A stretch of 64,000 nucleotides of DNA from Acidaminobacter hydrogenoformans DSM 2784 (GTDB lineage: Bacteria; Bacillota; Clostridia; Peptostreptococcales; Acidaminobacteraceae). Below the pieces are notes generated by a model, which did no database searches, was not told the DNA's origin, and saw only the letters and a list, made by a program, of their open reading frames with translations. This document shows, piece by piece, positions 22,100-38,611 of this stretch. The stretch covers positions 116,923-180,922 of the forward strand of contig NZ_FMWL01000006.1 of assembly GCF_900103005.1 (NCBI RefSeq), read 5' to 3'. Each line of letters starts with the position of its first letter. Within the stretch, counting starts at the first letter, position 1. Position numbers and translations under genes: made by a program.

Positions 22100-22275
22100 C
22101 TGGAAAAAGAGGGTTCGCCTATGTAGCCGGTCAACCTCATCCTCGTGAGTTGATGTACCAGAAATCCTGGGCTGGTTCCTGACTCGCGCTGGCATGACGC
22201 CATGCGCTCACAGTAGCGGGACTGTGCCGGCTTTTCACCGGCTTCCCAATTAAGTCCGAAGACACCACGGATTTA
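22100..22275 (-). ncRNA. cobalamin (AdoCbl-type) riboswitch
   Basis: Read on the minus strand it contains the B12 box region (GCCGGTGAAAAGCCGGC, then ACAGTCCCGCTACTGTGA) at 22207-22243, the GAGTCAGGAACC segment, and flanking stems. Downstream, a hairpin (about 22085-22125, GGCGAACCC / GGGGTTTTGCC) without a T-run is the probable expression platform. It precedes btuF, so corrinoid limitation should induce the transporter. Confidence 0.93.
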
Positions 22276-22456
22276 TGTTAATATCAGCCTCATCATACAC
22301 GATTGTAAAAAATAATGCAACCCTGCTTGCAGAAGTTGCTCCATTATTGACCATCGGCAAGGACTTAATCCTGCCTCTGGATGATTATTTCTGTTGTCCC
22401 CATGCTCCAGATGCTTTTACACATTCCATCCCCAAGAAAACCGTGTTTTTGCACAC

Positions 22457-22581
22457 TTCATCCACAGTTTCTGTGGATAACCTCGTTTCATGCCCTATAA
22501 TCGACATTATTCGATACGAACACAGATTCGGTTATACACATAGTCCACACGTTATCCACCGTTTAACACAGATTTTACACA
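22457..22581. repeat. DnaA-box cluster
   Basis: One perfect box TTATCCACA on the minus strand (22472-22480) and several near-matches on the plus strand: TTATACACA (22532-22540), TTATCCACC (22552-22560), TAGTCCACA, TTTAACACA and TTTTACACA (22573-22581). The arrangement TTCGGTTATACACA ... GTTATCCAC recurs at 38.4 kb with the same 20-nt spacing. Confidence 0.65.
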
Positions 22582-22654: not shown

Positions 22655-22900
22655 ATGCTTATTAAGATTTACGGACACGGCTGCGACAAGTGTGAAAAGA
22701 TGTACACGCTGGTCCTTGAAATTTTAGCTGAAAAAGGTATGGAGGCTGAGGTCGAAAAGGTCGAGTCGCTTATGGACATCTATAAAGCAGGCGTTATGAC
22801 GACCCCTGCCATGAGCATTGACGGCACCATGGTTTATGCGGCAAACGCAGTACCGGGACGCAGCAGCCTCGAAGCGCTTTTATTGAAAAACAAGGGGTAA
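22655..22900 (+). CDS. thioredoxin-fold small redox protein (CxxC)
   Basis: 81 residues. The N-terminal beta strand MLIKIYG is followed by the redox motif CDKC (Cys10, Cys13) and a cis-Pro region TTPAMSIDG, the minimal thioredoxin/redox-active-disulfide fold. GGAGG precedes the ATG. The next gene, 30 nt downstream, is a paralogue in which the active site is Cys-TGA. The two form a bicistron ended by a terminator. The physiological partner is unknown; a cytosolic thiol-transfer role is likely. Confidence 0.85.
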   Translation: MLIKIYGHGCDKCEKMYTLVLEILAEKGMEAEVEKVESLMDIYKAGVMTTPAMSIDGTMVYAANAVPGRSSLEALLLKNKG

Positions 22901-22930
22901 ACACCATTGACTTTGAAGGGAGTGGGAACT

Positions 22931-23191
22931 GTGAAGCTGATTATTTATGACCAGGTTTGCTGAGGGTATTCTAAAATAGCGCCCATCGTGAATGAGGCCA
23001 TACAACAAATGAAGGTTTCTCTGGAAGTTGAAATTATTGGTGATATCCGGCTGATTCGGGAGGCGGGGGTTGAAATGATGCCCGCCATGGCTATGGAAGG
23101 AAAAATCCTCCATCAGGGCAGAACCCCAAACGTCCAGGAGGCCATTGCCATATTGGAAAAAGCGCTTGCGGAAGCGGCATCCGGAACATAA
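22931..23191 (+). CDS. thioredoxin-fold selenoprotein candidate with vicinal Cys-Sec (in-frame TGA)
   Basis: 86 residues if the TGA at 22961-22963 is read as selenocysteine (Sec11). A GTG start with AAGGGAG 8 nt upstream gives VKLIIYDQVCUGYSKIAPIV. The beta strand and Cys10 align with the CxxC paralogue just upstream, and the cis-Pro region (EMMPAMAMEG) lies downstream of the TGA in the same frame, so both sides are under coding constraint. Directly after the TGA, 22964-22984 can fold as GGG-TATT-loop-AATA-bulge-CCC, a SECIS-like hairpin. The motif is Cys-Sec-Gly-Tyr rather than CxxU or UxxC. The alternative is a point-nonsense pseudogene (TGG to TGA). A HesB-type Sec gene elsewhere in the window shows that Sec use is likely. 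Confidence 0.72.
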
Positions 23192-38212: not shown

Positions 38213-38611
38213 CATAAAATTTAAGTCATTGACTGGTTCTGCTTATACACTTGACACGCTACCATCGGCCTCAATCTCTTTATTCCCTGAATTGACGAAA
38301 GCTAAACACAGCGAACTTTTTAGCTTAAAATTTTAATTTCATTCGTTAGAAACCTGACCAAGGCCCTAAAATTAGAGTTTTAGGGTCATGTTTATAAATA
38401 GATACATTCGGTTATACACACAACCCACAGGTTATCCACAGTTTTCCACAACCTTTTCCACAAAAAGTGTGAACTTTCCTGATTCTCATTCTCAAAACAC
38501 GCACCGCTATTTGAGTCTGCTGGCGCACAGATTTCCATTATCATTCAAGGCACGCCAATACAGAATCATGGCGTGATCGTGTATACTATAACCGGAAAGG
38601 AAGTGACACCC
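38213..38611. other. 399-nt gap holding the DnaA-box cluster and recU promoter
   Basis: Apart from the DnaA boxes (38412-38462) and a TATACT -10-like element at about 38581-38586, it contains an inverted repeat CCCTAAAAT / ATTTTAGGG-like (AGGCCCTAAAATTAGAGTTTTAGGG region, about 38361-38383). No convincing gene. Confidence 0.5.
38412..38462 (+). repeat. DnaA-box cluster upstream of recU
   Basis: TTATACACA (38412-38420), perfect TTATCCACA (38432-38440), TTTTCCACA (38442-38450) and TTTTCCACA (38454-38462), all in the same orientation. It matches the 22.5-kb cluster in sequence (TTCGGTTATACACA) and in the 20-nt box spacing. Confidence 0.7.

What the first reader, a model, noticed from the sequence alone, without database searches (positions are those of the whole stretch)
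22931..23191. Thioredoxin-fold gene with a Cys-TGA (Cys-Sec) active site beside its CxxC paralogue
A GTG start with a ribosome binding site, 10 codons, then TGC-TGA-GGG, followed by 75 in-frame codons that keep the thioredoxin cis-Pro region. The aligned upstream paralogue has CDKC. The TGA is next to the Cys that aligns with the first Cys of CxxC, giving a vicinal Cys-Sec pair, not the usual CxxU/UxxC. A hairpin follows the TGA directly. I know of the vicinal Cys-Sec motif from the C-terminal GCUG of animal thioredoxin reductases, not from small bacterial thioredoxin-like proteins, so this could be a little-described class.
Basis: partly seen in the sequence, partly recalled or inferred. Interest (0 to 1): 0.85.

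Follow-up and report, generated by a model that had tools for sequence, protein, structure and literature searches.

The report
Cys-Sec thioredoxin-fold protein for arsenicals
A small thioredoxin-fold gene in an Acidaminobacter-type anaerobe carries an in-frame TGA that is very likely read as selenocysteine next to a cysteine, and because about half of the relatives found sit beside arsenic-type regulators or efflux pumps (three pumps with a TGA of their own), it is predicted to bind toxic arsenic-like compounds for removal.

Summary
In detail: GTG start, TGC-TGA-GGG, then 75 open codons (22931-23191), after a CxxC paralogue. Alone it would not beat chance (67 comparable TGAs in the window); conservation is decisive. 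The genome has selA, selB, selD (own TGA) and tRNA-Sec. Order-wide, at least 22 loci in 20 of 393 genomes keep a TGA at this residue; the one Cys form in the clade is in a genome without Sec machinery. A SECIS stem at +18 to +35 keeps 133 of 140 pairs (maximum 116 in 2,000 synonymous resamplings). Each Sec form has one Cys: vicinal Cys10 in 14 (CU), relocated Cys37 in 8 (GU), so a Cys-Sec pair is kept while the Cys moves. Models put the CU pair on a loop, not at the helix start as in the CxxC paralogue. Seven of 14 CU loci adjoin ArsR and/or ArsP_1 genes, five of 8 GU loci split ArsP_1-like genes; in three operons ArsP_1 itself has TGA in its C(S/T)C motif. Best reading: a Sec-armed metalloid carrier for efflux; a redox enzyme is the main rival. 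No active-site CU/GU subfamily is in the 2026 review table that I read, but three relevant papers were not available.

The parts
22931..23191 (+). predicted selenoprotein gene, 86 residues, CUGYS motif (Cys10, Sec11, Ser14)
   Evidence: at least 22 TGA-bearing loci in 20 of 393 genomes of the order; dN/dS 0.085 after the TGA against the same-genus copy
22958..22963 (+). TGC-TGA, vicinal Cys-Sec pair
   Evidence: of 22 TGA loci 14 have Cys before Sec, 8 have Gly there and Cys at residue 37
22981..22998 (+). SECIS-type hairpin GCCCAUC-GUG-AAUGAGGC, 24 nt between TGA and loop, G first in the loop
   Evidence: 133 of 140 pair cells kept in 20 sequences (6 of 7 in the window); 8 cells with both sides changed (0 of 500 shuffles); 0 of 7 pairs in the Cys homologue
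22916..22922 (+). ribosome-binding-site-like AAGGGAG, 8 nt before the GTG
   Evidence: sequence
22655..22900 (+). CxxC (CDKC) paralogue, MTH895/ArsE family thioredoxin-like protein, probably co-transcribed
   Evidence: TIGR00412 72.6 bits (cut-off 62), PF13192 2.5e-19; the CxxC-then-CU order is found in 7 of 14 CU loci

Best explanation
The gene at 22931-23191 encodes a thioredoxin-fold protein whose in-frame TGA is very likely read as selenocysteine, giving a Cys-Sec pair that is predicted to sit on an exposed loop and would bind trivalent arsenicals or a similar metalloid and pass them to an ArsP-type efflux permease. Shown by calls: the TGA, its conservation, the Sec machinery, the hairpin, the separate clade, the single Cys partner (10 or 37), the neighbourhood of relatives. 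Inferred: Sec insertion itself, the loop geometry (model made with Cys for Sec), metalloid binding and hand-over. Working picture: SelB and tRNA-Sec decode the UGA with the help of the hairpin 18-35 nt downstream; the reduced thiol-selenol pair would clamp As(III) or a methylated or aromatic As(III) species, as the Cys12-Cys13-Cys18 site of ArsD does, while the CxxC paralogue of the same operon would keep the pair reduced or release it. In the GU branch Cys37, at the end of strand 2, would take the place of Cys10. In the window's own genome the ArsP_1 gene is elsewhere (G000:C36), so the target permease would be reached in trans.
For: Sec: selA 631 bits, selB 381 bits, selD with own TGA (GUAAK) and tRNA-Sec (anticodon tca) in one cluster of contig C25; TGA is an ordinary stop here (14 of 48 long ORFs); at least 22 TGA loci in 20 of 393 genomes; 18 of these 20 have selA against 227 of the other 373 (p 0.005), the two without being 79% and 63% complete; the Cys form L053 sits in G048, a one-contig 99% complete genome without selA at E 1e-60, without a selB over the cut-off and without a tRNA-Sec over the cut-off. 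RNA. Pair: each of the 22 Sec forms has exactly one Cys in the aligned stretch, Cys10 (14) or Cys37 (8). Metalloid role: ArsR and/or ArsP_1 genes next to 7 of 14 CU loci and split ArsP_1-like genes next to 5 of 8 GU loci; one locus also has arsM, arsN1, arsA and arsD; three ArsP_1 genes carry TGA for the first Cys of C(S/T)C, a motif that PMC4435449 calls conserved in all surveyed ArsPs. Geometry: helix 1 starts at residue 17 in the Sec protein and at residue 11 in the CxxC paralogue. hhalign places the pair on the Cys12-Cys13 pair of ArsD (E 1.6e-4, probability 51%).
Against: No protein or selenium data. In the window itself and its nearest relative no ars gene is adjacent; 7 of 14 CU loci and 3 of 8 GU loci have none within about 5 kb (by eye). 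Three GU loci lie by acetolactate-synthase-like genes (by eye). The ArsD similarity is weak (below both curated cut-offs) and ArsD's third cysteine has no counterpart. ArsR-family regulators and ArsP_1 permeases can serve other metals. A Cys partner for Sec is as expected for a selenenylsulfide redox site as for a clamp. The AlphaFold model used Cys for Sec and only 27 sequences; the distance from Cys37 to Sec11 was not measured.
Confidence: 0.58

Rival explanations
1. A Sec-dependent redox enzyme (thiol-disulfide, peroxide or arsenate/selenium-compound reduction): Sec is the attacking residue of a UxxS site, Cys10 or Cys37 resolves it as a selenenylsulfide, and the CxxC paralogue reduces it; the metalloid genes nearby only reflect a shared stress.
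For: Thioredoxin fold with cis-Pro; UxxS in 22 of 22 TGA forms; one Cys partner in each; CxxC partner in tandem in 7 of 14; window neighbourhood has rubrerythrin-, ferritin- and desulfoferrodoxin-like genes (by eye); PMC2963123 reads the CxxC relatives in ars operons as electron carriers, possibly for ArsC.
Against: Helix 1 is predicted to start 6 residues later than in the CxxC paralogue, so the site is not a classical helix-capped one; repeated linkage is with ArsR/ArsP_1.
Confidence: 0.3
2. A Sec-armed carrier or sensor for another soft metal (Hg, Sb, Cu/Zn, organometals), not arsenic.
For: Two of the adjacent permeases tested also match SaoE and SO_0444 Cu/Zn efflux models, below cut-off; the review lists a UxC SO_0444 selenoprotein and the Sao proteins.
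Against: One locus carries arsM, arsN1, arsA, arsD; the ArsR-family protein at six of the seven CU loci has an LCVC motif (sequence).
Confidence: 0.1
3. The TGA is a plain stop: a nonsense mutation, a sequencing error or a 10-codon leader peptide before a separately started short protein.
For: The protein database search returned only pieces that begin after the TGA (10 hits of 60-71 aa); a pattern of this kind alone is common by chance.
Against: Same TGA in at least 22 loci of 20 genomes; codons before the TGA conserved too; SECIS pairs exceed the synonymous-codon control; Cys homologue in a Sec-less genome.
Confidence: 0.02

Closest known systems
MTH895/ArsE family thioredoxin-like protein ('redox-active disulfide protein 2', TIGR00412 / PF13192; structure 1ilo)
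   Same: Fold, length, cis-Pro and C-terminal GxxPxxxE region; 1ilo is the best solved sequence relative (E 4.1e-12); 3 of 20 Sec forms pass the TIGR00412 cut-off (66.0-68.3 bits); the family is known in ars operons (PMC2963123, passages)
   Different: No CxxC; Cys10-Sec11 or Gly10-Sec11 with Cys37; the window protein and 16 other Sec forms stay below the cut-off of 62 (window 40.7); separate clade 98/98
Brachyspira thioredoxin-like selenoproteins Sec.1 and Sec.2 (PF13192; PMC5330540, passages)
   Same: Sec in the same Pfam family; gene cluster with a Cys paralogue; bacterial SECIS
   Different: Their Sec lies in an N-terminal extension before the thioredoxin domain; here it is inside the domain at the CxxC place and there is no extension
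ArsD arsenic metallochaperone (NF033727 / PF06953)
   Same: Vicinal pair after a first strand-like stretch; hhalign aligns pair to pair; one relative locus encodes both
   Different: Far below ArsD cut-offs (16.8 of 90 bits); third Cys and C-terminal Cys pairs missing
Seleno SO_0444 efflux transporter (UxC) and SaoE, for the neighbouring permease
   Same: Sec for the first Cys of a C-x-C motif; metal(loid) efflux
   Different: The neighbour permease is ArsP_1 (1.1e-72) and below the SO_0444 and SaoE cut-offs (90 of 300 and 115 of 325 bits)
Animal thioredoxin reductase C-terminal Gly-Cys-Sec-Gly (Cys497-Sec498; PMC10957665, passages)
   Same: Vicinal Cys-Sec pair, there a target of arsenic trioxide
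   Different: C-terminal tail of a flavoenzyme, unrelated fold and context (recalled)

Membership tests
Bacterial selenoproteins | in-frame TGA conserved at one residue, with coding constraint on both sides | tested here: met
Bacterial selenoproteins | selA, selB, selD, tRNA-Sec in the genome | tested here: met
Bacterial selenoproteins | SECIS hairpin shortly after the TGA, G in the apical loop | tested here: met
   (the spacing and loop rule is recalled)
Bacterial selenoproteins | Cys homologue at the Sec position | tested here: met
   L053 in G048; one only, on a long branch
Bacterial selenoproteins | selenium in the protein | not testable with these tools
   needs 75Se or mass spectrometry
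MTH895/ArsE (TIGR00412) | score over the curated cut-off of 62 bits | tested here: not met
   window Sec protein 40.7 bits; of 20 Sec forms 3 pass (L049 66.1, L055 66.0, L056 68.3) and 17 do not; the CxxC paralogue has 72.6
MTH895/ArsE (TIGR00412) | CxxC active site | tested here: not met
Thioredoxin_3 (PF13192) | score over Pfam gathering cut-off | tested here: met
   41.5 against 24.8 bits
Brachyspira Sec.1/Sec.2 | Sec in an extension N-terminal to the domain | tested here: not met
ArsD | score over NF033727 / PF06953 cut-offs | tested here: not met
   16.8 of 90; 16.7 of 27 bits
ArsD | Cys12, Cys13 and Cys18 | tested here: not met
   pair aligned, third Cys absent (Cys roles from PMC4562236, passages)
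CGFS monothiol glutaredoxins | glutathione site and Fe-S cluster binding | not tested
   only the UGFS/CGFS likeness, recalled

The most novel reading that the evidence does not exclude
A selenium-for-arsenic relay: anaerobes of one clostridial order use Sec in both halves of an arsenical extrusion module, a thioredoxin-fold carrier with a Cys-Sec clamp and an ArsP permease with Sec in its C(S/T)C gate, so that trivalent arsenicals are moved from selenol to selenol and out of the cell.
Probability: 0.3. Interest if true: 0.85.

Novelty: new variant of a known kind. Interest (0 to 1): 0.72.

Why it matters
It adds a conserved Sec subfamily to the thioredoxin-fold selenoproteins, in which Sec stays put while its single Cys partner sits either next to it (residue 10) or far along the chain (residue 37): a natural experiment on what Sec needs. 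The database hits found here begin after the TGA, so such genes are easily missed. The link with ArsR/ArsP_1 operons, three with a second in-frame-TGA gene, makes a testable case for selenium being used to handle a metalloid rather than to speed up a redox reaction. It also suggests an RNA signal shaping a protein: the P-I/V-V-D stretch of the Sec forms coincides with the hairpin and is not kept in the Cys form (ENILIRA) or the CxxC paralogues shown.

Full report
Observation. The window is G000:C35:116923-180922; its same-genus relative G001 carries the gene on a contig of 99443 bases, the same length and place as the Acidaminobacter sp. MAG4 record L117, so the source is an Acidaminobacter-type bacterium (Peptostreptococcales, Acidaminobacteraceae). 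The gene reads VKLIIYDQVCUGYSKIAPIVNEAIQQ... with one TGA at codon 11. Thirty bases upstream ends an 81-residue CxxC paralogue. Read alone, this would not exceed chance: 67 distinct TGAs in the window have a start within 30 codons before and at least 70 open codons after.

Is the TGA read as Sec? The genome has selA (631 bits, cut-off 268), selB (381, cut-off 242), selD (403, cut-off 125, itself with a TGA in GUAAK) and tRNA-Sec (70.5 bits, anticodon tca), all between 268 and 277 kb of contig C25. TGA also ends 14 of 48 little-overlapping ORFs of at least 150 codons in the window, so it is a stop in general. In 393 genomes of the order, 136 have some family match at E 1e-5 or better (mostly without a TGA at the site), and 22 places in 20 genomes have a TGA at exactly this residue (the list was cut, so a lower bound). 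Fourteen read CU, eight read GU. Of the 20 carrier genomes 18 have selA, against 227 of the other 373 (one-sided Fisher p 0.005); the two without are 79% and 63% complete. One clade member has Cys for Sec (FEVVCCKGGK, L053); its genome, G048, is a single contig, 99% complete, and has no selA at E 1e-60, no selB over the cut-off (best 184 of 242 bits) and no tRNA-Sec over the gathering score (three 85-nt hits at 46.4 of 47 bits; a like hit of 47.9 bits in G000 is a tRNA-Ser by ARAGORN, while the tRNA-Sec hits of four Sec genomes have 68-74 bits). Against the same-genus copy, differences after the TGA fall 10/8/35 on codon positions 1/2/3 and dN/dS is 0.085. A protein database search gave 10 hits, each beginning after the TGA.

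RNA signal. In the 20 aligned TGA sequences a stem GCCCAUC-GUN-GAUGNGGC lies at the same distance, 24 nt between TGA and loop; RNAalifold finds it by itself. 133 of 140 pair cells are standard (95%); eight cells have both sides changed, at pairs 36-53, 39-49 and 40-48 (0 of 500 shuffles as high; covariation score 0.232, 0 of 500; slid versions 24-53% paired). Two weaker measures: pairs with both sides changed, 12 of 500 shuffles reach it; further pair types, 370 of 500. Because the protein is conserved too, I resampled synonymous codons: mean 100, maximum 116 of 140 in 2,000 rounds. The Cys homologue keeps 0 of 7 pairs and five correctly framed CxxC paralogues 1-3 (a sixth control row was out of frame and is dropped). 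In the window one pair is lost (C-A) and 6 of 7 remain.

Family. Read with C for U, the window protein matches Thioredoxin_3 (41.5 bits, cut-off 24.8) but stays below the MTH895/ArsE model (40.7 of 62), which its paralogue passes (72.6). Of 20 Sec forms 3 pass that model (66.0-68.3 bits) and 17 do not; no NCBIfam selenoprotein model is matched at E 0.01 by any of the 21 members of A3. So this is a branch of, or sister to, the MTH895/ArsE family without its CxxC. The alignment of the 21 is ungapped through the site; Sec/Cys11, Pro51, Gly63 and Pro66 are invariant. In a tree of 46 rows (79 columns, weak in detail) the split between {14 CU, 8 GU, L053} and {22 CxxC, L066} has 98/98 support; GU is one nested clade (99/97), so CU looks ancestral (rooting is by midpoint).

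The Cys partner moves. In the aligned stretch each of the 22 Sec forms has exactly one Cys: Cys10 in the 14 CU forms, Cys37 in the 8 GU forms (0 of 14 CU forms have Cys37), and Ser at U+3 in 22 of 22. Residue 37 directly follows strand 2 (residues 32-36 in the model); in thioredoxin folds the end of this strand lies on the active-site side (recalled, distance not measured). One loss with one gain on one branch is a single event, so it is suggestive, not proof, that Sec needs a Cys partner.

Geometry. AlphaFold2 models (27 sequences each, mean pLDDT 91.7 and 94.2) give the same fold, but helix 1 starts at residue 17 in the Sec protein and at residue 11 in the CxxC paralogue. The pair would therefore lie on a loop. 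Caveat: Cys stood for Sec.

Neighbourhood. CU loci (n = 14): ArsR and/or ArsP_1 adjoin seven: G013 (ArsR), G037 (ArsR, ArsP_1), G087 (ArsR, CxxC), G062, G120 and G132 (ArsR, ArsP_1, CxxC), and G096 (arsM, arsN1, CxxC, CU, then ArsP_1, ArsR, ArsA and ArsD on the other strand). The CxxC paralogue lies directly upstream in seven, the window included. The other seven, window and G001 included, show no ars gene within about 5 kb (ORF lists read by eye). GU loci (n = 8): five are divergent from a pair of half-length ArsP_1-like genes (one half of each pair passes the Pfam cut-off); three lie by acetolactate-synthase-like genes (by eye). In G062, G120 and G132 the ArsP_1 gene itself has an in-frame TGA, SPF-U-SCSTVPIFIGF, where G037 has SPFCSCS; among the 31 permease matches listed in 21 of 22 searched genomes these three alone have a TGA. 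PMC4435449 (passages) reports C(S/T)C as conserved in all surveyed ArsPs, and tPF before it in one of two ArsP clusters, which fits. In the window's genome ArsP_1 (no TGA) is on contig C36 next to a third MTH895-like gene.

Mechanism. Sec insertion I hold at about 0.96. For the role, the recurrent ArsR/ArsP_1 linkage, the loop position, the vicinal pair aligned with Cys12-Cys13 of ArsD (hhalign E 1.6e-4, probability 51%; the CxxC family aligns with ArsD only in its C-terminal half, E 3.5e-4) and the permease neighbours with their own TGA favour a metalloid carrier. That the Cys-Sec pair of thioredoxin reductase is a target of arsenic trioxide is stated in PMC10957665 (passages). The main rival is a Sec redox enzyme using UxxS with Cys10 or Cys37 as resolving residue and the CxxC partner as reductant; the moving Cys fits both.

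Known or new. Table 1 of the 2026 review PMC13188914 (119 families, table read in full) lists two PF13192 selenoproteins, Sec.1 and Sec.2 of Brachyspira; PMC5330540 (passages) says that their Sec lies in an N-terminal extension. It lists a UxC SO_0444 transporter, which is close to, but by cut-off not the same as, the permease seen here. I found no mention of a CU/GU active-site PF13192 family or of a seleno-ArsP_1 (listings), but three relevant papers were not held. I therefore call it a new variant of a known kind.

Noticed in passing
L141:6601-7548 (+), L146:8210-9157 (-), L145:6664-7611 (+): ArsP_1 permease genes with an in-frame TGA for the first Cys of the C(S/T)C motif (SPF-U-SCS), each in an ArsR-permease-CxxC-CU order; stem-loops fold after these TGAs, without a control.
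   Followed up: partly
L046, L051, L052, L054, L057, L063-L065 (GU branch), residue 37: The GU branch has lost Cys10 and carries a Cys at residue 37 in 8 of 8 members, against 0 of 14 in the CU forms.
   Followed up: partly
window 22458-22560 and 38412-38462: Two clusters of four DnaA-box-like 9-mers each (at most one mismatch to TTATCCACA; 22 such hits in the window); the first lies directly upstream of the CxxC-CU pair.
   Followed up: no
window 22153-22284 (-): Cobalamin riboswitch (Rfam 72.3 bits) ahead of a substrate-binding-protein-like and ABC-transporter-like genes on the minus strand (by eye).
   Followed up: no
L149, L151, L152: Gly-Sec branch members by acetolactate-synthase-like genes (in L151 and L152 also a nitrilase-like gene; by eye), with no arsenic-type gene seen near; the link is unexplained.
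   Followed up: no
L143:7473-7709, L144:6936-7172: Second CU copies (EHVCUSGSEMEPIVDAAL) in G096 and G132, next to a ~102-aa gene of unknown kind shared by both and without ars genes seen near.
   Followed up: partly
L142:10043-10381 (-): A 112-aa cysteine-rich protein (CCCGPSDNCGPSEE) between arsA and ArsR, no Pfam or NCBIfam match.
   Followed up: no
L066:1501-1749 (G054): A CC-type relative with a longer loop (NCCGSHGKRDAS) in a genome that has selA; it groups with the CxxC side of the tree on a long branch.
   Followed up: partly
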